36,322 nt of DNA, taken from positions 1 to 36,322 of the forward strand of contig JAFTPG010000061.1 in assembly GCA_017463375.1 (NCBI GenBank), read 5' to 3'. The number at the start of each line of letters is the position of its first letter. The stretch's first letter is position 1. The notes beneath the pieces are model-generated. The model was not told the origin of the DNA. It made no database searches and was given only the letters and a program-made list of their open reading frames with translations. This DNA is from Ruminococcus sp. (GTDB lineage: Bacteria; Bacillota; Clostridia; Oscillospirales; Ruminococcaceae). The translations under genes were made by a program, and so were the position numbers. Positions 9,526-30,396 of this stretch are shown here, piece after piece.

Positions 9526-10196
9526 TGAACTATGTGCTTGCAATTGCGGCAGCAGCTGTAATCAGCTATTTGCTGGGAAGCTGTAATTCTTCAATCATCG
9601 TAGTCAGACTGCTTAAAGGCGAGGATGTCCGCAGTAAGGGAAGCGGAAATGCAGGTCTTACAAATACTCTCAGATGCTACGGAAAGGGCTGCGCTCTGCT
9701 GACTCTCATCGGAGACCTCGGAAAAGGAGTCGTTGCCGTACTGCTTTCGAGACTGATCTGCAAAATGCTTGAAGCAGGTCTTACTCCCGACAATGATACC
9801 CATTACATCGGATATATAGCAGGTCTTTTTGCGATTCTGGGACACGTTTTTCCGCTGTATTACGGCTTCAAGGGCGGAAAAGGCGTTCTTGTCGGAGTTT
9901 CAATCTTCATTGTTGTAAATCCGGTTGTTTTTGCAATTCTCATAGGAATATTCGCAATAGTCCTCATACTTTCAAAGTATGTATCGCTGTCCTCAATTAT
10001 AGCTTCGGCGATGTGTCCGGTTCTGACGATTCCGGTGGGACTTTATATTAATCAGGTCTCGCTGGAAAGAAGCCTGCTTTACGCAGTTCTTTCAATACCG
10101 ATGGCAGCAATGGTAATATGGATGCACCGCTCGAATATTCAGCGTCTGAAAGACGGCTGCGAAAATAAATTTTCATTCAAATCATCAGGAAAGTGA
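9522..10196 (+). CDS. plsY: Glycerol-3-phosphate acyltransferase PlsY
   Basis: This 224-residue integral membrane enzyme transfers acyl from acyl-phosphate to glycerol-3-phosphate, the first step of phospholipid synthesis in most Gram-positives. Family motifs: ISYLLGSCNSSIIVVRL, the conserved GSGNAGLTNTLR (motif 1), GHVFPLYYGFKGGKGV (motif 2, acyl-phosphate binding) and several hydrophobic segments. It overlaps der by 4 bp and is followed after 47 bp by gpsA, which makes its glycerol-3-phosphate substrate. A second ATG 3 bp downstream could also initiate. Confidence 0.95.
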   Translation: MMNYVLAIAAAAVISYLLGSCNSSIIVVRLLKGEDVRSKGSGNAGLTNTLRCYGKGCALLTLIGDLGKGVVAVLLSRLICKMLEAGLTPDNDTHYIGYIAGLFAILGHVFPLYYGFKGGKGVLVGVSIFIVVNPVVFAILIGIFAIVLILSKYVSLSSIIASAMCPVLTIPVGLYINQVSLERSLLYAVLSIPMAAMVIWMHRSNIQRLKDGCENKFSFKSSGK

Positions 10197-11834: not shown

Positions 11835-11859
11835 ATATTTATAAGCCTGAATAAAGCAG

Positions 11860-12037
11860 AAAGTTTTCGGTCCAGCCTTTTTCAAAAGGCTGGCGGGGTC
11901 GAGGGGCAGCGCACCTCGTCGCTCTCCGCAGAGAGCGAAACTCCTTGCCCTGAAAGGCGCTCAGCAAGGGGTGAATTTCAAAACAGTCCGGTGGACTGTT
12001 TTGAAAGAGGGGACGCCCTCTCTTGCAGGGCGTCCCC
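11860..12037. repeat. Hairpin-array intergenic repeat, copy 2
   Basis: This is homologous to 200-437 but lacks its central hairpins. Shared blocks are GAAAGTTT.CGGTC at the start, a CCAGCC/GGCTGG hairpin, GCTCTCCGCAGAGAGCGAAA, CCTTGCCCTGAAAGGCGCTC, ACAGTCC..TGGACTGT and a closing 11-bp perfect stem (GGGGACGCCCT at 12009-12019, AGGGCGTCCCC at 12027-12037). In two helices the copies differ by compensating changes on both arms, which argues that the base pairing itself is maintained. It lies between the flavoprotein terminator and the convergent dnaC-like gene. No coding potential is apparent. Confidence 0.75.
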
Positions 12038-12050
12038 TATACTAAAAAGT

Positions 12051-13016
12051 TTATTTTTTCCCGTTCTGTTTGAGCTGGAAACGCACGTCCTCGCCCTTGA
12101 ATTCCATGCAGGTATAGACCGCTGTAATTCGTGAGACGACACGCTCCTCGTAGCGGCGGCGGATTCCTGCAAAATCAAGATTAGTACTGATAATAGTAGG
12201 TCTGCCGCTGTTGAGACGTGTATTTATGATATTATAGATAGTGGAGCTGTAAAAAGCGGATTCATATTCCGTACCGAGGTCATCGAGAATCAGCAGCTCT
12301 GCGTCCATAACAAGATTGATCATGTCGGAGCTGTGCTCACGGCTGAAATGCTCACGCTCGATGCTCCGCAGGATATTGATAATGGAGTCATAAATAACGC
12401 TGTAGCCTCGCTCGAGAACCTTATTTGCAATAGCAAGAGAAAGATGAGTTTTACCCAGTCCCGTTTTGCCGAACATGAGTATGCTCTCAGAATTGGCGTT
12501 GAAGGTTTCGGCATAACGCTTGGCGAAATTGAAAATGCGCTCCATAGTGAAATAGTCCTCGCCCTTGTAGTAGCTGAGACTGAACGTGTCGAAGCTGGAG
12601 AGCTGAAGCTGAGCGTTGCGGTTGAGATTGGAGGCGGCAAGGCTTCCGCAGAGCTTTTTGAAGCAGTCGCAGAATTCGCTGTTGAAGTAGCCTGTATCCT
12701 GACACTTAGGACAGGAGTAGTGCAAATCAAGGTAATTCTCGGGATATCCGTTCGAGACAAGAATCTGACGTGACATCATCTGAGCGCCGAGGTTAAACTG
12801 TCTGAGCTGTTCGATTTTTTCGGTTACAGCCGCACCCTGTCCGGAGGTCATAATTTTAATCAGCTCCTTGCCGGTATTGTAGAGCTGATTGTTAATCTCA
12901 CGGATCTGAGGAATTTTTTCATTGATTTCACGGATTCTGTTTTCGTTTTCGTTTACAGCCTTCATGCGGCGGTTGGTCATAATCGCACGGGCTTTGTCAA
13001 AGATTTCGCTGTCCAT
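12051..13016 (-). CDS. DnaC/DnaI-like helicase loader ATPase
   Basis: This 321-residue AAA+ protein resembles replicative-helicase loaders. An N-terminal helical region (about 1-95) precedes a cysteine motif CPKCQDTGYFNSEFCDC (about 103-119), probably zinc-binding. The ATPase core has Walker A GKTGLGKTHLSLAIAN (about 183-198), Walker B ELLILDDLGTEY, then the IINTRLNSGRPTIISTN sensor region and a C-terminal arginine-rich RRRYEERVVSR. DnaI-type loaders place DnaB helicase on DNA at initiation or restart. It lies 11 bp downstream of the DnaD-like gene, the usual primosome pairing in Firmicutes. The ribosome site AGGAGGTG is strong. Confidence 0.9.
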   Translation of the reverse strand: MDSEIFDKARAIMTNRRMKAVNENENRIREINEKIPQIREINNQLYNTGKELIKIMTSGQGAAVTEKIEQLRQFNLGAQMMSRQILVSNGYPENYLDLHYSCPKCQDTGYFNSEFCDCFKKLCGSLAASNLNRNAQLQLSSFDTFSLSYYKGEDYFTMERIFNFAKRYAETFNANSESILMFGKTGLGKTHLSLAIANKVLERGYSVIYDSIINILRSIEREHFSREHSSDMINLVMDAELLILDDLGTEYESAFYSSTIYNIINTRLNSGRPTIISTNLDFAGIRRRYEERVVSRITAVYTCMEFKGEDVRFQLKQNGKK

Positions 13017-13027
13017 ATCAACACCTC

Positions 13028-14035
13028 CTAGAAGTTATTGATGAATATTTTGTACTTATCGACATCAAAGTCGTCGTCCGAAGCTCTGGCGTCGGATTTT
13101 TTTCTCTTTTTGTAGTCACTTTCGGCATTTTTGACATCTTTGACGGAGGTATATCCGCTGTCACGCCATGAAAGGAGAATCTTATTTATGTACTCGAAAG
13201 AGAGCTTATCAATCTGCTCAATTGTTTTCTCGTAGGCATAGTGTATCAGCTCCAGATTGAAGCCGATAGTTTTCCACTGAGCAATAATATCCATCTGCTT
13301 GGCAGTGGGACGGCGTTTCATCTCAAATGAGCGCATGATCTGAGTGACATACTCTCTTGATCCAGACATACGGCTGACTTCCTCCTGAGCGGCGTTGAGC
13401 GTATTGATTTCGTTTTCGCTCCAGTCGCAGGCAATTTTCTCAATATATCCCGGGTTTGTCTTTTCGATTGAAACGCAGTAGGCAAGAAGAGTTATGATAA
13501 CCTCTTTTTTCAGTCCGAGATATGTATACATCCAGATCAGGGAATTCTGCTGAATGTGGGTAAGCGTGCCGAGTATGCTTTCAGCAGTTTTAAAAAGCTC
13601 GGAAATATCGTCGGAATCCTTCATAAGCTTTGAGATCTCCGACGGAGTGAGATTCTGTTTCTGTCTTGGCTGAGGAGCTGTTTTTTTCTCCTCGGCAGGA
13701 GCCTTCTGTACTGAGTCAGACGGTGAGGCAGCCGGCGGAACAGTATTCTGAACCGGAGCAGCCGTCATGATAGAATTATTCCGGAGCGTCTGAGCTGAAT
13801 CAGGCGACAGAACGTTTACCTGCTGCCAGAACATAACTGCGTCGGCAGCCTGCTGAGGAGAAACTCCGGTATTGAGAGCAATTTCCTCATCGGTGCAGTC
13901 TCTGCCCGAGCAGCGAAGAATATAAAGCAGAACCTTGAGCTGTTCACCAGTAGCGAGCTTGAGAAAGTTATCTGCCACAATGCAGGGGACTCCGAACATA
14001 GTACCCCAAATACCGCTGTTTGTCTTGAAATTCAA
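13028..14035 (-). CDS. DnaD/DnaB-type primosome component
   Basis: This 335-residue replication-initiation protein has an N-terminal winged-helix DnaD-like domain (about 15-95). A Pro/Ala/Lys-rich linker follows (about 100-140), then one or two DnaB_2/DnaD C-terminal helical domains: SEISKLMKDSDDISELFKTA with QNSLIWMYTYLGLKKEVIIT, and a second block near SREYVTQIMRSFEMKRRPTA. The order matches DnaD-family proteins that, with DnaI-type loaders, deliver helicase to the origin. The start is a TTG: no in-frame ATG is nearer than residue 13, and GGGAGG lies 8-9 nt upstream. That ribosome site is inside one arm of an inverted repeat whose loop carries the promoter (see 14044-14098). A basic C-terminal tail follows the last domain. 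Confidence 0.88.
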   Translation of the reverse strand: MNFKTNSGIWGTMFGVPCIVADNFLKLATGEQLKVLLYILRCSGRDCTDEEIALNTGVSPQQAADAVMFWQQVNVLSPDSAQTLRNNSIMTAAPVQNTVPPAASPSDSVQKAPAEEKKTAPQPRQKQNLTPSEISKLMKDSDDISELFKTAESILGTLTHIQQNSLIWMYTYLGLKKEVIITLLAYCVSIEKTNPGYIEKIACDWSENEINTLNAAQEEVSRMSGSREYVTQIMRSFEMKRRPTAKQMDIIAQWKTIGFNLELIHYAYEKTIEQIDKLSFEYINKILLSWRDSGYTSVKDVKNAESDYKKRKKSDARASDDDFDVDKYKIFINNF

Positions 14036-17427: not shown

Positions 17428-18615
17428 TTATTTTTTCAGCAGCTGCTTGATTCTCTCAGCTGCAATTTTTGTATCCTCGGGACTTCCGAAGGTAGAGAAA
17501 CGGAAATAGCCTTCACCGCATTCGCCGAAGCCCTGACCGGGAGTTCCGACAACCTGAATTTCATTGAGAAGGAGATCGAAAAACTCCCAGCTTGTCAGAC
17601 CGTCGGGGCATTTGATCCAGATATATGGAGCGTTTTTTCCTCCGCAGTACCATATACCCAGCTCATCAAAGGCGCTCATGAGGCAGGCAGCGTTCTGCTT
17701 GTAAATTCTGATATTGCTGTGAATCTGCTGCTGACCCTCGGAAGTGAAAACTGCGGCAGCTCCTTTCTGAATGATGTAGGATACGCCGTTTGTTTTTGTC
17801 GTACGGTTGCGTACCCACATCGAGTTCAGGTTCATTCCCCTGCGTTCAAGCTCCTTGGGAATAACTGTATAGCCCAGACGAGTACCGGTAAATCCGGCAG
17901 TCTTTGAAAGCGAGCAGATTTCAATTGCACAGGTGCGTGCACCGTCTATTTCAAAGATGCTGTGGGGGAGCGAGTCGTCCTCAATGAAAGCCTCGTATGC
18001 GGCGTCAAAAAGAATTACCGAGCCGTTTCTGTTAGCATAGTCAACCCATTCTTTGAGCTGAGTGCGGTTGAATACAGCACCTGTAGGGTTGTTCGGAGAA
18101 CAGATGTAGAGTATGTCAGCCTTGATATTATCGTCAGGTGCAGGAAGAAAGCCGTTCTCCCTGCCGGATGAAACGTGGACGATCTTTCTTCCGCCCATAA
18201 TGTTTGCGTCCACATACGCAGGATATGCCGGTTCAATTACGAGTGAAGTATTGCTGCGGTCGAAAAGGTCGAGGATATCGCCAAGCTCATCGCTTGCGCC
18301 GCTTGACACAAAGACTTCGTCCGGAGACAGGGTTACTCCTCGGGTTCTGTAATATTCCGCAATTGCTTCACGCAGGAACGGTGCGCCGCATTCGGGCATA
18401 TATCCGTGAAAGGTTCCAGCCTGAGCCTGATCGTCAACAGCTTCGTGGAGAGCTTCTATAACAGCGCCGCACAGAGGAAGCGATACGTCGCCTATTCCCA
18501 TTCTGTAAAGGTGAGTATCAGGGTGCTCATTCAGATATGCTTTGGTTTTCTGAGCGATATTATAAAAAAGGTATGAATCCTTGAGGTCGGAATAAAAAAG
18601 ATTTGGTGTAGTCAT
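17428..18615 (-). CDS. dapL: LL-diaminopimelate aminotransferase
   Basis: This 395-residue PLP-dependent class I aminotransferase converts tetrahydrodipicolinate to LL-diaminopimelate in one step, bypassing the succinyl or acetyl DAP branches. Features: HLYRMGIGDVSLPL near the N-terminus, GTFHGYMPECGAPFLREAI, SSGASDELGDILDLF, CSPNNPTGA, and the PLP-lysine motif SLSKTAGFTGTRLGY. It overlaps dapF by 4 bp (ATGA), whose product epimerises LL-DAP, so the pair supplies meso-DAP for peptidoglycan and lysine. It is the last gene of the asnB-pyrG-purF-dapF-dapL run. Confidence 0.95.
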   Translation of the reverse strand: MTTPNLFYSDLKDSYLFYNIAQKTKAYLNEHPDTHLYRMGIGDVSLPLCGAVIEALHEAVDDQAQAGTFHGYMPECGAPFLREAIAEYYRTRGVTLSPDEVFVSSGASDELGDILDLFDRSNTSLVIEPAYPAYVDANIMGGRKIVHVSSGRENGFLPAPDDNIKADILYICSPNNPTGAVFNRTQLKEWVDYANRNGSVILFDAAYEAFIEDDSLPHSIFEIDGARTCAIEICSLSKTAGFTGTRLGYTVIPKELERRGMNLNSMWVRNRTTKTNGVSYIIQKGAAAVFTSEGQQQIHSNIRIYKQNAACLMSAFDELGIWYCGGKNAPYIWIKCPDGLTSWEFFDLLLNEIQVVGTPGQGFGECGEGYFRFSTFGSPEDTKIAAERIKQLLKK

Positions 18616-19400
18616 ATTTCAGTTTCTCCTTCGTAAATAGTTTCAGCAGGACCTGTCATAGTTATCCTGAAATCATCGGCAGCATTGATTTTAAGTGTTC
18701 CGCCGTCGAGAATAACGGAGATCTCCTCGTTGTGACGGCAGAATCTCTTAGCAGCCGCTGCTGCTGCGGAAGCGCACGCTCCGGTACCGCATGCCATAGT
18801 AATTCCGCTTCCTCGCTCCCATACTCTCATGCGGAGAGTGCTTCTGTCAATGACCTGAACGAACTCGACATTTACTCCTCCGGGGAAGGCGTCGTGCTTT
18901 TCGATCGCAGGTCCGACCTTCTCAAGAGCCACAGCCTCAGCGTCGGGAACGAATATAACAGCGTGAGGATTTCCCATAGAAACAGGCGTGCAGGTGATCT
19001 CTTCGCCGCTGACTGTGAGAGTCATATCATCGCTGATCTCAGCGATCCCCATATCAACAGAAGCGCTTTTTACCCGTCCCTTTGAAACTTTAAGTTCAAG
19101 AGTTTTAATACCCGAAAGTGTTTCGACCGTAATACGGGTTTTATCGGTATAGCCCTTGTCGTAGACATATTTTCCGACGCAGCGTATGCCGTTTCCGCAC
19201 ATTTTAGCTTCGCTGCCGTCGGCATTGAAGATACGCATTTTGAAATCCGCCGTATCGGAGGGAGAGATCCATATCATACCGTCCGAGCCTGCGCCGAAGT
19301 GGCGTTCGGAAAGCTTTACAGAAAGCTCCGAAGGATTTACAGGCTCGCCGTATACATATAAGTAGTCGTTTCCAAGACCGTGCATTTTTGTAAAGTGCAT
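18612..19400 (-). CDS. dapF: Diaminopimelate epimerase
   Basis: This 262-residue PLP-independent epimerase interconverts LL- and meso-diaminopimelate. It starts MHFTKMHGLGNDYLYVYG. The two catalytic cysteines lie in AKMCGNGIRCVGKYVYDKG (first) and TMACGTGACASAAAAAAKR (second). Other motifs are GSDGMIWISPS and GNPHAVIF. It is coupled to dapL by a 4-bp overlap and follows purF after 14 bp. AGGAGGT-like GGAGGTA precedes the start. Confidence 0.96.
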   Translation of the reverse strand: MHFTKMHGLGNDYLYVYGEPVNPSELSVKLSERHFGAGSDGMIWISPSDTADFKMRIFNADGSEAKMCGNGIRCVGKYVYDKGYTDKTRITVETLSGIKTLELKVSKGRVKSASVDMGIAEISDDMTLTVSGEEITCTPVSMGNPHAVIFVPDAEAVALEKVGPAIEKHDAFPGGVNVEFVQVIDRSTLRMRVWERGSGITMACGTGACASAAAAAAKRFCRHNEEISVILDGGTLKINAADDFRITMTGPAETIYEGETEI

Positions 19401-19414
19401 AATATTACCTCCAT

Positions 19415-22464
<3,050 letters not shown>

Positions 22465-22466
22465 TT

Positions 22467-22627
22467 AGAACCTGTTCACATAGGATATAATGCACGTCTT
22501 TTCGGCAGATTTCGCTGTTGACTGCGTTAAAAAATTTGAAATGCGACAGCATTCCTGCGTTTTTTGCCTTGTCCTCAACAAAATTGTGCTTGAAAATCCA
22601 CACATGAATCCTATGTGGACAGGTTCT
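22467..22627. mobile_element. MITE-like element A between asnB and pyrG
   Basis: A 161-bp non-coding element has 20-bp terminal inverted repeats with one mismatch (AGAACCTGTTCACATAGGAT at 22467-22486; ATCCTATGTGGACAGGTTCT at 22608-22627). It shares its terminal motif (TGTTCACAT) and an interior block (TTCCTGC, GCCTTG, ATGCTT-type segments) with 26491-26655, in the same orientation. No transposase is encoded. It occupies essentially all sequence between the asnB stop and the pyrG ribosome site. Confidence 0.75.
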
Positions 22628-22632
22628 TAAAA

Positions 22633-24210
22633 TTATTTTCCGCTGTCTCCGTAGTTTGCAAGAACTCTCGCCGAGGGGTCGTTTACATCGCAGCCCTCCC
22701 ACTCCTTGTTGGGCATCCAGAAATCAACTATCATTCCGCCCTGACCGGGATAGTACTTCTCAAAAATCTCACGGTAAAGGAGCGACTCCTTTGTAAATGG
22801 CTGAGCGTGGGTATATTTCCGGCGCAAAGTCTCAAACTCATCGTCAGTGTAGAAGGCTTCGGCGTATTCTTTAAGATAATCCACCATGGAGTGTCCCACT
22901 GCGTCTGAGAAGGCAGCCTTTTCACGCCAGAGTATCTCATCGGGGAGATAGTCTCCTTCAAAGGCTTTTCGGAGAAGATATTTGCCCTTTCCGTACTTAT
23001 TCAGCTTCATCTCAGGGTCGATGGACATGACATATTTCACGAAATCGAGGTCTCCGAAGGGAACTCTTGCCTCGAGTGAGTTTACCGAAATACAGCGGTC
23101 GGCACGAAGTACATCGTACATATGAAGCTCACGGATCCTCTTCTCTGATTCGGCTTGGAAAGCCTGAGCGTCAGGAGCAAAATCTGTATACTTGTAGCCG
23201 AAAAGCTCGTCGGAGATTTCTCCTGTGAGGAGCACACGGATATCGGTCTGCTCATGGATCGCCTTGCAGATGAGATACATTCCCATACTCGCACGAATGG
23301 TTGTTATATCGAATGTGCCGAGCAGGTGAATAACCGTTTCCAGCGAAGAAAGCACATCGTCCTTTGTGATGTAGATTTCCGTGTGGTCACTTCCGATGAA
23401 GTCTGCTGCCTGCTTAGCATATTTGAGATCGATAGCGTCCTCGTTCATACCCACGGCAAAGGTTTTAATGGGAGCGTCACTTTTCTTTGCGGCAATAGCG
23501 CAGACAAGTGAGGAATCAAGACCTCCCGAGAGCAGGAATCCTACCTTTGCGTCGGCAACAAGACGTTTTTCAACTCCAGTTACGAGCTTATCGTGAATAT
23601 TGCGGCATACAGTTTCGAGACCATCGCAGCAGACGGTTTCAGGCTTTGCGATATCGCAGTAGCAGATGAACCTGCCATCTTTATAATAATGTCCGGGCGG
23701 AAACGGCATAATCTTATCTGTAAGACCGACAAGGTTTTTTGCTTCGCTTGCAAACAGAATTATACCTTTTTCGTCATAGCCGTAATAAAGCGGACGGATT
23801 CCGATAGGATCTCTTGCGGCGATATAGTCCTGAGTCTCTGCGTCGAATATAATGCAGGCGAACTCAGCGTCGAGCATAGCAAACATATCGGTGCCGTACT
23901 CCTTATACATAGGCAGCAGTATCTCACAATCGGACTCACTTTCAAAGCTGTACTTAGAAGAAAGAGCCTTTTTCAGCTTTTCAAAGGCGTAGATCTCGCC
24001 GTTGCAGACAGCATAGCTTCCGTCAAGAGAAAAGGGCTGCATACCCGAAGGCGTCAGTCCCATAATTGCGAGACGGTGAAATCCAAGCAGTCCATTGCCC
24101 GTATCAACGATACGGCTGTCATCGGGACCTCTTGAAACGGTCTGCTCAAATCCTTTTTTGAAAGCGTCTGAATCAGCACTGCATCCGCAGTAACCCATAA
24201 TTGAACACAT
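22633..24210 (-). CDS. asnB: Asparagine synthase (glutamine-hydrolysing)
   Basis: This 525-residue class II amidotransferase makes asparagine from aspartate using glutamine nitrogen. Cys2 in MCSIMGYCGCS is the N-terminal nucleophile, followed by SRGPDDSRIVDTGNGLLGFH and YAVCNGEIYAF. The C-terminal synthetase has the PP-loop FLLSGGLDSSLVCAIAAKKS and LTGEISDELFGYKYTDF. I start at 24210, preceded by GGAGGAG, because Cys2 must follow the initiator Met; an in-frame ATG 23 codons upstream would bury it. A short upstream reading frame ends 2 nt before this start. It lies between glnN and pyrG and is probably in the same transcription unit. Confidence 0.94.
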   Translation of the reverse strand: MCSIMGYCGCSADSDAFKKGFEQTVSRGPDDSRIVDTGNGLLGFHRLAIMGLTPSGMQPFSLDGSYAVCNGEIYAFEKLKKALSSKYSFESESDCEILLPMYKEYGTDMFAMLDAEFACIIFDAETQDYIAARDPIGIRPLYYGYDEKGIILFASEAKNLVGLTDKIMPFPPGHYYKDGRFICYCDIAKPETVCCDGLETVCRNIHDKLVTGVEKRLVADAKVGFLLSGGLDSSLVCAIAAKKSDAPIKTFAVGMNEDAIDLKYAKQAADFIGSDHTEIYITKDDVLSSLETVIHLLGTFDITTIRASMGMYLICKAIHEQTDIRVLLTGEISDELFGYKYTDFAPDAQAFQAESEKRIRELHMYDVLRADRCISVNSLEARVPFGDLDFVKYVMSIDPEMKLNKYGKGKYLLRKAFEGDYLPDEILWREKAAFSDAVGHSMVDYLKEYAEAFYTDDEFETLRRKYTHAQPFTKESLLYREIFEKYYPGQGGMIVDFWMPNKEWEGCDVNDPSARVLANYGDSGK

Positions 24211-24212
24211 AA

Positions 24213-24272
24213 TTAACTCCTCCATGTACCACTTAATGCCGACGGATCTCTCCGCCGGCATAAATGATCCAT
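24213..24272 (-). promoter_or_regulatory. Candidate leader peptide (uORF) of asnB
   Basis: A 19-codon frame (MDHLCRRRDPSALSGTWRS) begins 9 nt after AAGGAG and stops with TAA 2 nt before the asnB ATG, overlapping the asnB ribosome-site region. Its coding sequence holds a 9-bp GC-rich hairpin (GCCGACGGA 24238-24246, TCCGCCGGC 24251-24259). Translation through it could open the hairpin and couple ribosomes into asnB. There is only sequence plausibility for this, and no comparative support. Confidence 0.3.
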
Positions 24273-24307
24273 AATACATTTCTCCTTTCCTTATTCAATA
24301 AGGAACA

Positions 24308-26404
24308 TTATTTAACGCCGAAAAGCAGATCTCCGTAAGTGGGGAAAGGCCAGTATTTTTTAGCAGTAATAACCTCCGCCTCATCGCAGGCAGCACGCAG
24401 CTCGCTCATTCTGACAAGAACAACGTCACGGATCGCGTCAGCTTCCTCACCGATATTTCCTGCTGAATCAAGAGCAGCTACAGCCTGTTCAAGCTCAATA
24501 GTTCCGTCAAAGATGCTGTCTGCAAGAGCCGAGAGCTTCTTTACAAGAGTGGTTTCATAAGCACAGGGAATGCTTTCGTCAAGAGCCTTCTTTGCAGCGG
24601 CAGTCTTAGCAAGCTCCATAGCATAAGCCTCAACCGCAGGAGCAATCTCTGTTCTTGCCATATCCACCATTGTATCTGCTTCAATTCTGACAGTCTTGCA
24701 GTAGTTTTCGAGCATGATCTCATATCTTGATTTCAGCTCTGTTTCGGAGAATACTTTCAGAGAAGTCAGCATAGTCACATTCTTCTCATCCAACAGATGA
24801 GGCATACAGTCGGGAGTAGTGCGGTAGTTGAGGAGACCTCTCTGCTCTGTAGCCTCCTTGATCCATGAATCGTCATAGCCGTTTCCGTTGAAGATAATGT
24901 GCTTGTGATCCTTGATAGTCTTGCGTATCATCTCGTGAAGAGCAGTTTCAAAGTCCTCAGCCTGTTCAAGCCTGTCAGCGTAGATCCTCAGGCTTTCAGC
25001 AACAGCGCTGTTGAGCATGATGTTAGCACAGGCGATGCTGTTGGAGGAACCAAGCATACGGAACTCAAATTTATTGCCTGTAAATGCGAAGGGGGATGTA
25101 CGGTTACGGTCTGTAGTATCACGGTTGAATTTCGGAAGAACATCAACTCCGAGCTTCATCTTAGTTTTTTCAGTACCGCTGTAGGGCTCATCCTTTTCGA
25201 TAGCTTCGATCACCGCATTCAGCTCATCGCCGAGGAATATTGAAACAACTGCGGGAGGAGCTTCATTTGCACCGAGTCTGTGGTCATTGCCGGCGGTCGC
25301 AACGGAAATTCTGAGCAGATCCTGATAATCATCGACAGCCTTGATAACTGCACAGAGGAAAAGCAGGAACTGTGCATTTTCGTAAGGAGTCTCACCGGGA
25401 GAAAGAAGGTTAACACCTGCGTCAGTGGCAAGAGACCAGTTGTTATGCTTGCCGCTTCCGTTAACTCCTGCGAAGGGCTTCTCATGAAGGAGACAAACAA
25501 GTCCGTGCTTAGCTGCGACCTTCTGCATGATCTCCATTGTAAGCTGGTTGTGGTCGGTTGCGATATTGGTAGTAGTATATATAGGAGCAAGCTCATGCTG
25601 TGCGGGAGCTACCTCGTTATGCTCGGTCTTAGCGAGGATACCAAGCTTCCATAGCTCATCGTTAAGCTCTTTCATGTAAGCCTCGACTCTGGGCTTGATG
25701 ACGCCGAAGTAATGGTCATCCATCTCCTGACCCTTAGGCGGCTTTGCTCCGAATAAAGTACGTCCTGTAAATATAAGGTCACGGCGCTGATCGTACATTT
25801 TCTTATCTACGAGGAAATATTCCTGCTCGGGACCTACAGAAGTGCGTACACATTTTACGCTGTCATTTCCGAAAAGTCTCAGAATACGAACAGCCTGCTT
25901 GCTGAGAGCTTCCATTGAACGGAGAAGCGGAGTTTTCTTATCGAGAGCCTCGCCGCCGTAGGAGCAGAATGCTGTAGGAATGCATAATGTCTTACCCTTG
26001 ATAAAAGCATAAGAGGTAGGATCCCATGCTGTATAGCCTCTTGCCTCGAAGGTAGCTCTCAGACCTCCGGAAGGGAAGGAAGAAGCGTCAGGTTCGCCCT
26101 TGATGAGTTCCTTTCCTGAGAACTCCATGATCACACCGCCGTCGGGTGAGGGAGTGATAAAGCTGTCGTGTTTTTCAGCTGTAATGCCTGTCAGCGGCTG
26201 GAACCAATGAGTGTAGTGAGTAGCACCATTAGCGATCGCCCAGTCCTTCATAGCAGCTGCCACAGCATTTGCAACGCCGATGTCAAGCTTTGCGCCCTCG
26301 TCGATAGTCTTTTTAAGTGACTTATAAACCTTTGCAGATAAATTGGCTTTCATCACTCTGTCGTCAAATACCAGACTTCCGAAATACTCAGATACAGTTC
26401 CCAT
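24308..26404 (-). CDS. glnN: Type III glutamine synthetase
   Basis: This 698-residue GSIII ligates ammonia to glutamate with ATP, the main ammonia-assimilating enzyme in ruminococci and Bacteroidetes. The length is typical of GSIII (about 700) and far above GSI (about 450). Recognisable blocks: [40 protein letters not shown] in variant form ([20 protein letters not shown]), [49 protein letters not shown] and [19 protein letters not shown] start at [10 protein letters not shown] (26404) after AAAGGAG; a longer frame starts inside the attenuator. Its roughly 375-nt leader has two terminator-like hairpins separated by a MITE, indicating control by attenuation, probably by nitrogen status. Confidence 0.95.
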
Positions 26405-26424
26405 AAAAATCTCTCCTTTACTTA

Positions 26425-26478
26425 ATAAAAAAGACAAGGGCACCTCTGATGTAAATACATCAAAGACGCCCTTGCCTT
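26425..26478 (-). terminator. Proximal attenuator hairpin (H2) of the glnN leader
   Basis: On the minus strand GGCAAGGGC pairs with GCCCTTGTC, enclosing an inner stem TGATGT-attt-ACATCA, followed by TTTTTT. It ends only about 20 nt before the glnN start. Its 5' arm and downstream AGGTGCC match the distal hairpin H1. An intrinsic terminator between promoter and gene fits an attenuator. Confidence 0.75.
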
Positions 26479-26490
26479 AATATATCATAT

Positions 26491-26655
26491 TAGAGCGTGT
26501 TCACATTAAAACCAAACACGCATATTTTTGCAAATTTCATCAACTTCTGCGTTGAAAATTTTTGCAATACGCAAGTATTCCTGCAAATTTTCGCCTTGAA
26601 TTTGACGAAATTATGCTTAAAAATCTGCATATTCATTTTATGTGAACACGCTCTA
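26491..26655. mobile_element. MITE-like element B within the glnN leader
   Basis: A 165-bp AT-rich element has 16-bp perfect terminal inverted repeats (TAGAGCGTGTTCACAT at 26491-26506; ATGTGAACACGCTCTA at 26640-26655). The interior resembles element A at 22467-22627 in the same orientation. It encodes no transposase. It separates the two attenuator hairpins of glnN. Confidence 0.78.
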
Positions 26656-26718
26656 AATTTTTGCCGCTGACGTTCACAGGTTTTGAACACAGCGTTTTAA
26701 AGTCTGCGCTGACTTATG

Positions 26719-26774
26719 GGGAAAAAGAAAAGACAAAGATACCTTCAAGGATGAACCTCAAAGACGCCTTTGCC
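26719..26774 (-). terminator. Distal attenuator hairpin (H1) of the glnN leader
   Basis: On the minus strand GGCAAAGGCGTCTTTGAGG folds back on TCCTTGAAGGTATCTTTGTC with interior mismatches, followed by TTTTCTTTTTC. It begins about 13 nt after the -10 box, so the transcript enters the hairpin almost at once. Its sequence parallels H2 and the glt leader hairpin. Confidence 0.7.
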
Positions 26775-26787
26775 TTTTCTGCTTTGT

Positions 26788-26816
26788 ATTATACACCTGC
26801 AAAAATCATTTGTCAA
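26788..26816 (-). promoter_or_regulatory. Sigma-A promoter of glnN
   Basis: On the minus strand TTGACA (26816-26811) and TATAAT (26793-26788) are perfect and 17 nt apart. Transcription would start near 26780, roughly 375 nt before glnN. Confidence 0.85.
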
Positions 26817-26865
26817 CCCCCTTTTCATAATTTTCCAAAAAAATTTGAAATCGAAAATTTTGGTC

Positions 26866-26894
26866 TTGACAAAGCTAAAAAAGCGTAGTATAAT
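26866..26894 (+). promoter_or_regulatory. Sigma-A promoter of the glutamate synthase operon
   Basis: TTGACA (26866-26871) and TATAAT (26889-26894), both perfect, are spaced 17 nt. It is divergent from the glnN promoter with about 50 bp between the two -35 boxes. Confidence 0.87.
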
Positions 26895-26906
26895 ACAGAC
26901 AAATGA

Positions 26907-26969
26907 GCAAAGGCGTTCGTTTCAAAGCAGGCTTAGGTGTCTGTTCTGAAATGAACGCCTTTCTTTTTT
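26907..26969 (+). terminator. Attenuator hairpin (H3) of the glutamate synthase leader
   Basis: A 16-bp stem with one mismatch (AAAGGCGTTCGTTTCA at 26909-26924, TGAAATGAACGCCTTT at 26947-26962) is followed by CTTTTTT. It starts about 8 nt after the predicted start site and lies about 90 nt before the first gene. The 5' part GCAAAGGCGT and the loop AGGTGTC match the glnN attenuators at the same spacing. Confidence 0.8.
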
Positions 26970-27059
26970 AACGTGTTCTTATTGACGGCATATATGTAAA
27001 GACGCATATAAATACACATAAGGACAGGTTTTAAAATCTCCGAAAGGAAGGGAAACCCT

Positions 27060-28151
27060 ATGAAATTAGAAGGTCAGGTGCGAATCCCCTCAGGATGTGC
27101 GATTGCAGCTGTTATTTCCAAAGACGGAAACAGAATGTCCGGAGAGATGATTACAAATTCAATGAAACCGATGCATGACCGCTCCAACGGACTTGGCGGA
27201 GGCTTTGCAGGCTATGGAATTTATCCTGAATACAAGGATTTTTACGCATTGCATTTCTTTTTTGATGATCGAGCAACCCGGAAAAGCTGCGAGTTTTTTC
27301 TAAAAGAAAGATTTGAGATCGTGAAATCCGAAATGATCCCCACACGAAAGCTTGCTGCCATCACAGACGAGCCTGTTATATGGAGATACTTTGTTGCTCC
27401 GCTGAAATCAGTTCTTGCCTCGCTTCAGCTTGATGAAAAGGAATTTGTCGCAAGAACTGTCATGAAGATCAATACCGAAATAAACGGAGCTTATGTATTC
27501 TCCAGCGGTAAGAATATGGGAACATTCAAAGCTGTGGGCTTCCCCGAGGATGTCGGTGTATTTTATAAGCTTGAGGAATACGAGGGCTATTCATGGACTG
27601 CTCACGGACGTTATCCCACTAATACTCCCGGATGGTGGGGCGGAGCTCATCCGTTTACACTTCTTGACTATTCTATTGTTCACAACGGAGAGATCTCCTC
27701 GTATGACGCAAACCGCCGCTTCATAGAAATGTTCGGCTATAAATGCAATCTCCAGACCGACACCGAGGTAATCACCTATATCATGGATTATCTCATCCGT
27801 GTCCAGGGACTGACGCTGGAAGAGGCTGCAAATGTGATTGCGGCTCCGTTCTGGAGTACGATTGCTTCAAAGGATGAGGCTGAACGCCAGAAGCTCACAT
27901 ATCTGCGTACAGTATTTTCAAGTCTGCTTGTAACAGGTCCGTTTTCAATCGTACTCGGGTTCAGCGGCGGACTTATGGCTCTTAACGACCGCCTGAAGCT
28001 GCGTTCAATGGTGGTCGGAGAAAAGGACGATAAGGTGTACATTGCCAGCGAAGAAGCCACTATACGGGTAATGGAGCCGGAGGCTGAGAACATTTATGCT
28101 CCTGCCGGCGGAGAGCCTGTAATTATAAAAGTAAAGGAGGGCGCATTCTGA
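27060..28151 (+). CDS. Glutamate synthase, glutamine amidotransferase subunit (GltB N-terminal domain)
   Basis: This 363-residue stand-alone class II amidotransferase corresponds to the first domain of GltB, as in archaeal-type split glutamate synthases. It releases ammonia from glutamine for the partner synthase. The probable nucleophile is Cys13 after a 12-residue propeptide ending in RIPSG (then CAIAAVISKDG). Other motifs: MHDRSNGLGGGFAGYGIYPE, WTAHGRYPTNTPGWWGGAHP, SIVHNGEISSY and TDTEVITYIMDYL. GGAAGGG precedes the start. Its stop overlaps the next start (TGATG). The transcript begins in the H3 attenuator leader. Confidence 0.92.
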   Translation: MKLEGQVRIPSGCAIAAVISKDGNRMSGEMITNSMKPMHDRSNGLGGGFAGYGIYPEYKDFYALHFFFDDRATRKSCEFFLKERFEIVKSEMIPTRKLAAITDEPVIWRYFVAPLKSVLASLQLDEKEFVARTVMKINTEINGAYVFSSGKNMGTFKAVGFPEDVGVFYKLEEYEGYSWTAHGRYPTNTPGWWGGAHPFTLLDYSIVHNGEISSYDANRRFIEMFGYKCNLQTDTEVITYIMDYLIRVQGLTLEEAANVIAAPFWSTIASKDEAERQKLTYLRTVFSSLLVTGPFSIVLGFSGGLMALNDRLKLRSMVVGEKDDKVYIASEEATIRVMEPEAENIYAPAGGEPVIIKVKEGAF

Positions 28152-29656
28152 TGAGTGCAGAATTTATATATCCCGAATTTGAGGTTGTCAGAAATGACAG
28201 CCGCTGTACCGGATGCAGAGTTTGTGAGCGCCAGTGTGCAAACGAGGTTCATACCTTTGACGCAGAAAACGGCATTATGCTGAGCGATGAATTGAAGTGC
28301 GTAAACTGTCAGCGCTGCGTATCGCTTTGTCCGACAAGAGCGCTCAAAATCGTAAAAAGCGGCTGTACTCTGCGTGAAAATGCAAACTGGAAAAACGATA
28401 CCATCAGGGAGATCTACAAGCAGGCAAACAGCGGAGGAGTCCTCCTTTCTTCAATGGGAAATCCCAATTCGCTTCCTGTATACTGGGATAAGATCCTGAT
28501 CAATGCGTCTCAGGTAACCAATCCTCCCATCGACCCGCTGAGAGAGCCTATGGAGACTAAGGTTTTCCTCGGCAGGAAGCCCGGAAAAATGAGACGTGAT
28601 GAAAATGGCAGACTTGATTGCAGTCTGTCTCCTCAGCTTGAGCTTTCAATGCCCGTAATGTTTTCGGCAATGAGCTACGGCTCTATCAGCTATAACGCCC
28701 ATGAGTCGCTTGCAAGAGCTGCTGCGGAGCTTGGCATTCTCTACAATACGGGCGAAGGCGGACTGCATGAGGATTTCTACTGCTACGGCGAAAACACAAT
28801 AGTACAGGTTGCCTCCGGGCGATTCGGCGTTTACAAGAATTATCTTGAGGCAGGAGCTGCTATTGAAATCAAAATGGGTCAGGGAGCTAAACCGGGTATC
28901 GGCGGACATCTCCCCGGAGCTAAAATTGTCGGCGACGTTTCCCGTACCCGAATGATTCCCGAAGGCTCGGACGCTATTTCACCTGCACCTCATCATGATA
29001 TTTACTCTATTGAGGATCTGCGCCAGCTTGTATTCTCGCTGAAAGAAGCTACCGAGTACAAGAAGCCTGTGATCGTAAAGGTTGCCGCTGTACATAACAT
29101 TGCCGCCATCGCAAGCGGTATTGCACGAAGCGGAGCTGATATTATCGCTATTGACGGTTTCAGAGGAGGTACAGGCGCAGCTCCCACAAGGATCCGTGAC
29201 AATGTGGGAATCCCGATAGAGCTTGCACTTGCGTCCGTTGACCAGAGACTGCGTGACGAGGGAATCAGAAATAACGTTTCGCTTATAGTCGGAGGAAGTA
29301 TCCGCAGTGCCGCTGACGTTGTAAAAGCAATTGCACTCGGAGCCGATGCCTGCTATGTCGCAACTGCTGCGCTTCTGGCAATGGGCTGTCATCTCTGCCG
29401 TACCTGTCAGAGCGGCAAGTGTAACTGGGGTATTGCAACACAGCGTCCCGAGCTTGTAAAGAGGCTTAATCCCGATGTGGGCAGTGAGCGCCTTGTAAAT
29501 CTTATGAACGCATGGCGTCATGAAATCAAGGAGCTTATGGGCGGAATGGGTATCAATTCCATTGAAGTACTCAGAGGAAACCGTCTTATGCTGAGAGGCA
29601 TTGGTCTGACGCAGAAGGAACTTGAGATCCTCGGTATCTCTCATGCAGGCGAATAG
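28151..29656 (+). CDS. Glutamate synthase, FMN-binding catalytic subunit with ferredoxin domain
   Basis: This 501-residue central subunit of the split glutamate synthase makes glutamate from 2-oxoglutarate and ammonia. Residues 14-75 form a two-cluster ferredoxin domain (CTGCRVCERQC and CVNCQRCVSLCP). The FMN barrel follows, with PVMFSAMSYGSISYNAHESL, EGGLHEDFYCYG, KMGQGAKPGIGGHLPG and AIDGFRGGTGAAPTRIRDN. The cysteine run CHLCRTCQSGKCNWGIATQ corresponds to the 3Fe-4S site. No NAD(P)H-oxidising GltD is encoded next door, so electrons may come from ferredoxin or a distant GltD. It overlaps the amidotransferase gene by one base. Confidence 0.93.
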   Translation: MSAEFIYPEFEVVRNDSRCTGCRVCERQCANEVHTFDAENGIMLSDELKCVNCQRCVSLCPTRALKIVKSGCTLRENANWKNDTIREIYKQANSGGVLLSSMGNPNSLPVYWDKILINASQVTNPPIDPLREPMETKVFLGRKPGKMRRDENGRLDCSLSPQLELSMPVMFSAMSYGSISYNAHESLARAAAELGILYNTGEGGLHEDFYCYGENTIVQVASGRFGVYKNYLEAGAAIEIKMGQGAKPGIGGHLPGAKIVGDVSRTRMIPEGSDAISPAPHHDIYSIEDLRQLVFSLKEATEYKKPVIVKVAAVHNIAAIASGIARSGADIIAIDGFRGGTGAAPTRIRDNVGIPIELALASVDQRLRDEGIRNNVSLIVGGSIRSAADVVKAIALGADACYVATAALLAMGCHLCRTCQSGKCNWGIATQRPELVKRLNPDVGSERLVNLMNAWRHEIKELMGGMGINSIEVLRGNRLMLRGIGLTQKELEILGISHAGE

Positions 29657-29676
29657 CCGAAAGGAGGCATATAAAT

Positions 29677-30396
29677 ATGAAAATCAACGCTTGTAATTAT
29701 GATTACAAAAAGCTTAATGATATTATACGCCGTTCTGAGGAGAACTGCGAGATATCCGGCTGCTGCGGTCAGAGATTCATTGCCGCAGGTATGTCGGACA
29801 AAAGCATAACGATTGACGGAGTTCCCGGAAACGCACTCGGAGCATATCTCAACGGAGCTTCCATTACAGTAAATGCCAACGCACAGGACGCCGTTGGCGA
29901 TACCATGAACGAGGGCGAGATCATAATCCACGGAAACATCGGCGACGCAGCAGGTTATGCAATGCGCGGCGGAAAGATCTACGTCAAGGGAAATGCAGGC
30001 TACCGTGCCGGGATCCATATGAAGCAGTATGAGGATAAGGCTCCCGTAATGGTGATCGGCGGTACGGCAGGAAGCTTTCTCGGCGAATATCAGGCAGGCG
30101 GAGTCATTGTGGTTCTCGGTCTTGAAGCAAACAAGCAGCGCATTGTGGGAAATTTTCCATGCACAGGTATGCACGGCGGAAAAATGTTCCTCAGAGGAGA
30201 CTGCGCTGATATTAAGTTCCCCCGTCAGGTAACCGCAAGAAAAGCAGCTGCTGAGGATACCGAAGAAATAAGAAAGTATGTATCGGAATACTGCGCTTTG
30301 TTCGGATATGACACGGAGGATATAATGAACGCACCGTTTACGGTTGTGACTCCCGACAGCAAGAATCCGTATAAGCAGATGTACGTTGCAAACTGA
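29677..30396 (+). CDS. Glutamate synthase, GXGXG beta-helix subunit (GltB C-terminal domain)
   Basis: This 239-residue protein is made largely of the right-handed beta-helix repeats of the GltB C-terminal domain: GVPGNALGAYLNGASITV, NAQDAVGDTMNEGEIIIHGN, IGDAAGYAMRGGKIYVKGN and GTAGSFLGEYQAGGVIVVLG. In whole GltB this domain holds the other two together and shapes the ammonia channel. It is the third gene of the operon, 20 bp after the FMN subunit, with AAAGGAGG upstream. The operon ends in a hairpin shared with the convergent deacetylase gene. Confidence 0.92.
   Translation: MKINACNYDYKKLNDIIRRSEENCEISGCCGQRFIAAGMSDKSITIDGVPGNALGAYLNGASITVNANAQDAVGDTMNEGEIIIHGNIGDAAGYAMRGGKIYVKGNAGYRAGIHMKQYEDKAPVMVIGGTAGSFLGEYQAGGVIVVLGLEANKQRIVGNFPCTGMHGGKMFLRGDCADIKFPRQVTARKAAAEDTEEIRKYVSEYCALFGYDTEDIMNAPFTVVTPDSKNPYKQMYVAN

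What the first reader, a model, noticed from the sequence alone, without database searches (positions are those of the whole stretch)
26405..27059. Twin divergent promoter-attenuator leaders share a short RNA motif upstream of glutamine synthetase and glutamate synthase
Two consensus promoters face outward. Each is followed within about 12-14 nt of its -10 box by GCAAAGGCGT and then a strong hairpin plus U-tract before any gene. All three hairpins (two in the glnN leader, one in the glt leader) share GCAARGGCGT, then 18-20 nt, then AGGTRYC. In the glt leader the 5' motif half is also the 5' arm of the 16-bp terminator stem, so the motif and the terminator could be alternative folds. The genes are the ammonia-assimilation pair, so a nitrogen signal (glutamine, ammonium, or an ANTAR-type or other RNA-binding protein) is plausible. 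The sequence does not look to me like the known glnA or downstream-peptide glutamine aptamers, or like classic two-hairpin ANTAR targets.
Basis: partly seen in the sequence, partly recalled or inferred. Interest (0 to 1): 0.75.

Follow-up and report, generated by a model that had tools for sequence, protein, structure and literature searches.

The report
One-hairpin nitrogen switches at gene starts
Two nitrogen-assimilation operons start with a tiny RNA hairpin that an RNA-binding protein probably grabs to stop early termination; the kind of switch is known, but these versions use one hairpin where the studied ones need two.

Summary
Two consensus promoters face outward, each followed by a terminator before glnN or glt. 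GCAARGGCGT is a hexaloop hairpin, GC[AARGGC]GT, with A at loop position 1 and G at 4: the ANTAR target signature. Its loop and 3' arm are reused in the terminator's 5' arm. AGGTRYC is not part of the motif.

The same genome has the same design at guaA-carAB and at glnA plus an ANTAR gene. Many clostridial loci fetched for ANTAR genes (28 of 80 named ones) carry such leaders, at glt, glnN, glnA, amt, gdhA and glutamine-using genes. Of hexaloop leaders counted by loop letters, A1/G4 makes 41 of 47 and 42 of 55.

Best explanation: antitermination by a glnA-linked, pseudo-receiver ANTAR protein, like clostridial NitR. Unlike EutV targets there is one hexaloop, at the predicted transcript start, leaving no room for the P1 hairpin that eut antitermination requires. 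A second A1/G4 hexaloop is not enriched nearby. So: a new variant of a known kind. The regulator is inferred; the signal (glutamine, through glutamine synthetase) is a guess.

The parts
26866..26894 (+). glt promoter, TTGACA-17-TATAAT (12 of 12)
26901..26922 (+). glt hexaloop (antiterminator) hairpin AAATGAGC[AAAGGC]GTTCGTTT, loop 26909-26914
   Evidence: loop starts 14 nt after the -10 box
26909..26969 (+). glt intrinsic terminator; 5' arm begins at loop base 1; U-rich tail to 26969
   Evidence: leader fold -35.7 kcal/mol
27060..30396 (+). three-ORF glutamate synthase (27060-28151 amidotransferase, 28151-29656 ferredoxin + FMN synthase domain, 29677-30396 GXGXG)
26788..26816 (-). glnN promoter, TTGACA-17-TATAAT (12 of 12)
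26760..26777 (-). glnN hexaloop hairpin 1, AAAGGC[AAAGGC]GTCTTT, loop 26766-26771
   Evidence: leader fold -19.2 kcal/mol
26490..26656 (.). MITE-like inverted-repeat insertion between the two glnN attenuators
   Evidence: 16 matches in the genome, itself on both strands and short pieces included
26463..26478 (-). glnN hexaloop hairpin 2, AAGGC[AAGGGC]GTCTT, loop 26468-26473
26426..26477 (-). glnN terminator 2 with U-tract; contains AGGTGCC in its 3' arm
   Evidence: leader fold -32.3 kcal/mol
24308..26404 (-). glnN, type III glutamine synthetase
   Evidence: GSIII_N, Gln-synt_C
17428..24279 (-). genes probably co-transcribed with glnN: asnB 22633-24279, pyrG 20839-22452, GATase-PRTase protein (purF-like) 19415-20842, dapF 18612-19400, aminotransferase 17428-18615
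   Evidence: co-transcription inferred from close same-strand spacing

Best explanation
Each leader is a transcription attenuator controlled by an ANTAR-family antiterminator. Transcription starts from a near-perfect sigma-A-type promoter, presumably constitutively. The first RNA made can fold into a small hairpin with the hexaloop AANGRN. If the ANTAR protein is active it holds this hairpin, the loop and 3' arm cannot join the terminator stem, and polymerase reads on into glnN or glt. Otherwise the far more stable terminator forms and transcription stops. glnN and guaA carry two such units in tandem. The likely regulator is the ANTAR protein encoded behind glnA on contig C63 (a second glnA-ANTAR pair is on C12). 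Its receiver domain lacks the phospho-acceptor Asp, so it is probably gated by a partner, most simply the adjacent glutamine synthetase reporting glutamine or nitrogen status. Shown from sequence: promoters, hexaloops, terminators, their overlap, conservation, covariation, loop signature, gene linkage. Inferred: protein-RNA binding, antitermination, activation under nitrogen limitation. Guess: glutamine synthetase as sensor.
For: Loop signature against the other 15 letter pairs at loop positions 1/4 (one terminator can count under more than one pair). Terminators with an overlapping hexaloop of 4 bp or more: A/G 54, others 3 to 16 each, over 764 terminators near ANTAR and glt genes; A/G 66, others 7 to 26, over 1343 terminators in 80 named-genome loci picked by ANTAR protein. 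With a promoter also required: A/G 41, all others together 6; A/G 42, all others 13, of which GG 8. With no stem required: 39 of 48 and 37 of 39 leaders form 4 bp or more, against 13.5 and 18.4 with partners shuffled. Covariation 0.749, shuffled 0.329, slid at most 0.236 (rows had been chosen for pairing). Own genome: four covariance-model hits of 49-54 bits, then a gap to 28 bits; six hexaloops. Glutamine synthetase beside ANTAR: 71 of 71 named loci with room, 52 of 59 of the mixed set. R1 model hit at E <= 5e-4 in 40 of 69 ANTAR+ and 2 of 31 ANTAR- family genomes, p = 6e-7; without training genomes 32 of 61 and 2 of 31, p = 8e-6. Class: 34 of 100 and 3 of 96 (hand count). 42 of the 77 R1 hits with E <= 8.3e-4 lie within 10 kb of an ANTAR gene. 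EutV's essential Met172 is kept in 59 of 59 proteins, Tyr164 is His in 59, phospho-Asp is absent in 58. A review says NitR, an ANTAR protein of C. saccharobutylicum, antiterminates and induces GS/GOGAT genes on nitrogen limitation (PMC6316151, passage).
Against: No expression or binding data. The hexaloop hairpin alone is weak (median -3.7 kcal/mol, range 0 to -7.1; terminator median -26.1). Published work says a single hexaloop is not enough for EutV antitermination in vivo (PMC3369931, PMC8934654). R1 hits at E <= 5e-4 occur in genomes where no ANTAR gene was found: G093 and G117 in the family, G196, G200 and G283 in the class. 29 of 69 ANTAR+ family genomes and 66 of 100 ANTAR+ class genomes have no R1 hit at that cut-off. 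The C12 glnA-ANTAR pair has no such leader. Only 28 of 80 named loci showed a promoter-proximal leader within the fetched flank. Of 56 AA-loop hexaloop terminators in the named set, 23 had no promoter close by under my criterion; several are second units of tandems, others odd spacings or coding sequence (by eye). 9 of 48 and 2 of 39 promoter-AANGR-terminator leaders lack a 4-bp stem. In the family sample 10 of 40 ANTAR loci had no clear glutamine synthetase in the upstream 3.3 kb.
Confidence: 0.85

Rival explanations
1. Classic dual-hexaloop ANTAR target whose second hairpin (P1) has been overlooked.
Against: In the window the -10 boxes end 14 and 16 nt before the loops. In the 100 leaders the stem would start at about +1 to +9. 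A/G hexaloops upstream: 4 of 100 with 3 bp or more, 0 of 100 with 4 bp or more; in the terminator region 15 of 100, within the range of the other letters (6 to 28). Without any promoter condition, a P1-like hairpin in 1 of 56 AA-loop hits of the named set. Tandem loops lie 63 to 298 nt apart, outside the 5-12 nt eut linker.
Confidence: 0.06
2. Metabolite-binding RNA (glutamine- or ammonium-type aptamer) without a protein.
For: The genes mostly make or use glutamine, glutamate or ammonium.
Against: No Rfam match at gathering score; 29 sub-threshold matches in the leader region, all below gathering, best E 8.5e-5 to an animal microRNA hairpin model. The conserved part is a hairpin of some 14-22 nt with 12 different four-pair stems, too little for a known aptamer (inference). 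Loop letters are those of ANTAR targets and R1 hits track ANTAR genes.
Confidence: 0.04
3. Constitutive terminators with no regulation; the shared sequence is ordinary terminator similarity.
For: 13 of 19 GCAARGGCGT copies in the genome are not leaders, so the string alone is common.
Against: Stem halves covary; loop letters are strongly selected; near-perfect promoters sit at a similar distance and the genes are mostly nitrogen genes.
Confidence: 0.04

Closest known systems
ANTAR target RNAs of EutV, NasR and AmiR (Ramesh 2012, PMC3369931; Walshe 2022, PMC8934654)
   Same: Hexaloop with A1 and G4, short stem with conserved closing pairs, hairpin overlapping the terminator 5' arm; eut consensus AGCAANGRRGCUY against GAGCAARGGCGTTC here.
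   Different: Those have two hexaloops P1 and P2 (linker 5-12 nt in eut) and eut needs both; here each terminator has one, starting near the predicted +1.
NitR of Clostridium saccharobutylicum (Stutz 2007, not held; known here only from a passage in PMC6316151)
   Same: ANTAR protein reported to antiterminate GS/GOGAT genes on nitrogen limitation.
   Different: Whether its leaders have one or two hexaloops could not be checked here.
AmiC-AmiR and NasS-NasT partner-gated ANTAR regulators
   Same: The ANTAR protein here has a receiver without phospho-Asp, as AmiR has (PMC8934654 discussion; PMC3369936 passages); NasS releases NasT on a nitrate/nitrite signal (PMC3795266, search listing).
   Different: The neighbouring gene is glutamine synthetase, not an AmiC- or NasS-like protein.
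Glutamine-synthetase control of TnrA in Bacillus (passage in PMC6316151; GlnR recalled)
   Same: Would be the model if glutamine synthetase gates the ANTAR protein.
   Different: DNA-binding regulators there, RNA-binding antiterminator here. No interaction was tested.

Membership tests
ANTAR target RNA | hexanucleotide loop with A1 and G4 on a stem of 3 bp or more | tested here: met
   3 of 3 window hairpins and 6 of 6 leaders in the genome; loop-letter controls
ANTAR target RNA | hexaloop hairpin overlaps and excludes an intrinsic terminator | tested here: met
   29 of 30 covariance-model loci (L192 without a detected terminator)
ANTAR target RNA | two hexaloops P1 and P2, linker 5-12 nt in eut (2-25 nt accepted in PMC8164766, passage) | tested here: not met
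   promoter geometry
ANTAR target RNA | ANTAR protein encoded in the same genome | tested here: met
   two ANTAR genes, on C12 and C63
ANTAR target RNA | bound by an ANTAR protein, causing antitermination | not testable with these tools
   needs EMSA, in vitro transcription or reporters
NitR-type nitrogen ANTAR regulator | ANTAR gene beside glnA/glt genes | tested here: met
   L022 glnA 11853-13064 then ANTAR 13083-13667; 71 of 71 named loci with room, 52 of 59 in the mixed set
NitR-type nitrogen ANTAR regulator | sequence relationship to NitR itself | not tested
   NitR sequence not fetched; its paper is not held
phospho-relay ANTAR regulator (EutV type) | phospho-acceptor Asp in the receiver | tested here: not met
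   Asp in 1 of 59 proteins, Asn in 44 (L022 and L023 both Asn)
Rfam riboswitch families | match at gathering score | tested here: not met
   0 matches in the whole window

The most novel reading that the evidence does not exclude
A Clostridia-wide nitrogen regulon run by natural single-hexaloop antiterminators placed at the very 5' end of transcripts, so that a P1 recruitment hairpin is dispensable. The ANTAR proteins form a separate class (pseudo-receiver, His in place of EutV Tyr164) gated by the glutamine synthetase encoded next to them: an RNA-level counterpart of the glutamine-synthetase control of TnrA/GlnR.
Probability: 0.35. Interest if true: 0.75.

Novelty: new variant of a known kind. 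Interest (0 to 1): 0.62.

Why it matters
Walshe et al. 2022 found that an EutV dimer contacts one hexaloop at a time, yet both hexaloops are needed for antitermination; they called for work on how far single-hexaloop targets matter and expected them where polymerase timing is no constraint. These leaders look like single-hexaloop targets exactly where timing does matter, so they are a natural test of what P1 is for. They also suggest how many gut Clostridia control ammonium assimilation and glutamine-using enzymes, with one compact signature (promoter, AANGRN hexaloop, terminator) that can be searched for. The named, deposited strain Agathobaculum desmolans ATCC 43058 has the same glt/glnN pair.

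Tried and rejected
AGGTRYC as a motif: rejected, absent from the three C63 leaders. Pattern search TANNNT-N-GCAANGGCGT in 60 genus genomes: swamped by chance hits (own genome 16 against 11 for the reversed control; no clear excess in most others, by eye), because stem and loop differ in relatives; replaced by the geometric scan. Leader upstream of the C12 glnA-ANTAR pair: none seen, only a MITE-like repeat. Sub-threshold Rfam matches: 29 with E up to 5, all below gathering scores, mostly microRNA hairpin models; rejected. A second hexaloop as hidden P1 or inside the terminator: not enriched. Divergent leader pairs as a rule: common but not universal (46 of 71, 10 of 29, 24 of 42). GG hexaloops (8) may be other registers of the same hairpins; not followed. 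A fifth stem pair pairs in 15 of 28 rows only.

Weak points of the counts. The 71-leader set includes leaders from 30 loci picked by covariance model R1, and the 28 class loci were picked the same way (29 leaders in 23 of them), so the 100 leaders lean to the model; that scan also allowed only 9-18 nt from -10 box to loop. Sets not picked by RNA features are the first line. Alignment A1 used 28 of the 35 rows. One search gave 59 proteins from 62 loci; three ANTAR loci (L084, L105, L113) found by Pfam had no tblastn match and were dropped. Presence/absence counts depend on incomplete drafts. Of 40 family ANTAR loci, 30 had a type I glutamine synthetase match over 300 bits upstream (in L121 it is some 850 nt from ANTAR); 20 of 20 in the genus set. 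In one search, 15 of 19 unassigned downstream genes were read as ammonium transporters: two by Pfam (L085, L171), 13 by eye. In one search five of eight unassigned genes were read as gdhA by eye; gdhA was confirmed by Pfam in L178 and L230, dapF in L325.

Full report
What is there. The window is contig C129 of a 2.28 Mb draft genome; dockerin proteins suggest a Ruminococcus-like cellulose degrader, which is my inference. Between glnN (24308-26404, -) and a three-ORF glutamate synthase (27060-30396, +) lie two 12-of-12 promoters facing outward. The + leader has one terminator, the - leader two, separated by a MITE-like insertion (26490-26656) with 16 matches in the genome, itself on both strands and short pieces included.

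What the motif is. GCAARGGCGT folds as GC[AARGGC]GT: a hexaloop with A1 and G4 on a stem of 5 to 8 pairs. This is the loop signature of ANTAR target RNAs; the eut consensus AGCAANGRRGCUY is nearly the same string (PMC3369931: abstract, passages and three parts of its main section read). The loop and 3' arm are also in the terminator's 5' arm, so the two folds exclude each other. The hexaloop hairpin alone is worth -2.6 to -5.7 kcal/mol in this genome and the glt leader as terminator -35.7, so the default state should be termination.

The same design elsewhere in the genome. The exact string occurs 19 times. Six copies are leaders; of the other 13, 12 lie in long open frames and one, L006, is intergenic but not such a leader. 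Three leaders are in the window. The other three are on contig C63 (L022) in the same layout: a tandem leader to guaA-carAB one way, a single leader to glnA the other way, and directly behind glnA an ANTAR gene (guaA and carAB named by eye from their sequences). A covariance model of promoter plus hairpin finds these four promoters at 49-54 bits; the next hit is at 28 bits. The AGGTRYC half-motif is missing from the three C63 leaders and is dropped.

Relatives and controls. I scanned terminators in loci around ANTAR and glt genes for any hexaloop hairpin overlapping the 5' arm and compared all 16 letter pairs at loop positions 1 and 4. A/G: 54, the rest 3 to 16 each. Requiring a promoter as well: A/G 41, all others together 6. 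In 80 loci from named genomes, picked by ANTAR protein: A/G 42, all others 13; without the promoter condition 66 against 7 to 26. Loop base 2 was not selected for, yet is A in 71 of 71 (partly model-picked) and 40 of 42. Without requiring any stem, 39 of 48 and 37 of 39 leaders form 4 bp or more, against 13.5 and 18.4 with shuffled partners. Stems vary (CAGC/GCTG, GAAC/GTTC, AGGC/GTCT, GAGC/GTTC and others).

Genes. Downstream genes in the 71-leader set: glt 24, glnN 19, glnA 4, pyrG 4, guaA 1, 15 read as ammonium transporters (two confirmed by Pfam), one each of glutamate dehydrogenase, SAICAR synthetase and CP-ATP-grasp, one unclear. Class-level and named loci add asnB, NAD synthase, a glmS-like protein and dapF. 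In the window the genes behind glnN are asnB, pyrG, a purF-like protein, dapF and an aminotransferase. The theme is making or using glutamine, glutamate and ammonium, with a few genes outside it.

The protein. The ANTAR protein matches Rv1626, EutV and AmiR in the PDB. Type I glutamine synthetase lies directly upstream in 71 of 71 named loci with room and is present in 52 of 59 loci of the mixed set. In those 59 proteins the EutV phospho-acceptor Asp is absent in 58, Met172 is kept in 59, and Tyr164, which stacks on G4 in EutV, is His in 59. So this is a pseudo-receiver class, probably gated by a partner; the usual neighbour, glutamine synthetase, is the first candidate, untested. Genomes with an ANTAR gene have an R1 hit at E <= 5e-4 more often: 40 of 69 against 2 of 31; class level 34 of 100 against 3 of 96 (hand count).

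What is different. In eut, deletion of P1 abolishes induction and the 5-12 nt linker matters (PMC3369931). Walshe 2022 (PMC8934654; abstract and sections 23, 24, 26 read) argued that a dimer contacts one hexaloop at a time, kept P1 as a recruitment hairpin, and left single-hexaloop targets as an open question. A second A/G hexaloop is not enriched upstream (4 of 100; 0 of 100 at 4 bp) or downstream (15 of 100), and without any promoter condition a P1-like hairpin appears in 1 of 56 hits of the named set. Tandem leaders do not supply P1 either: the first unit has its own terminator, and the loops are 63 to 298 nt apart.

Known or new. ANTAR control of nitrogen genes, including glutamate and glutamine synthase genes, is known (PMC3369931; PMC3369936, passages), and NitR of C. 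saccharobutylicum is reported to antiterminate GS/GOGAT genes (PMC6316151, passage; primary paper not held). I found no description of single-hexaloop attenuators of this kind in searches of the open-licence library; subscription papers and supplements were not searched. Verdict: new variant of a known kind.

Limits. Everything rests on sequence. Start sites, binding, antitermination, the direction of the nitrogen response and the glutamine synthetase partnership are untested. Exceptions (R1 hits without a detected ANTAR gene, ANTAR genes without a detected leader) are listed under evidence against.

Noticed in passing
window 26490-26656: MITE-like element with terminal inverted repeats (TTAGAGCGTGTTCACA...) inserted between the two glnN attenuators; 16 matches at 70-100% identity in the genome, the element itself on both strands and short pieces included.
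   Followed up: partly
L023 9848-11745 (contig C12): Second glutamine synthetase plus ANTAR pair without a hexaloop leader; a MITE-like inverted repeat sits upstream (about 9620-9780; by eye).
   Followed up: partly
window 27060-30396: Glutamate synthase split into three ORFs (amidotransferase, ferredoxin + FMN domain, GXGXG), unlike the single long GltB of L151 (1511 aa).
   Followed up: no
window 17428-20842 (-): purF-like, dapF and aminotransferase genes behind glnN-asnB-pyrG; dapF also follows a hexaloop leader in L325 (Pfam) and, read by eye, in L327.
   Followed up: partly
leaders in the family, class and named sets: Hexaloop leaders often come as divergent pairs, -35 boxes mostly 42 to 141 bp apart, a few 285 to 482 (46 of 71, 10 of 29, 24 of 42 leaders); why is unexplained.
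   Followed up: partly
G093 (L189), G117, G196, G200 (L233), G283: R1 hits in genomes where no ANTAR gene was found; L189 and L233 also have the hexaloop and a terminator. Gene loss, a missing contig or another regulator are possible.
   Followed up: no
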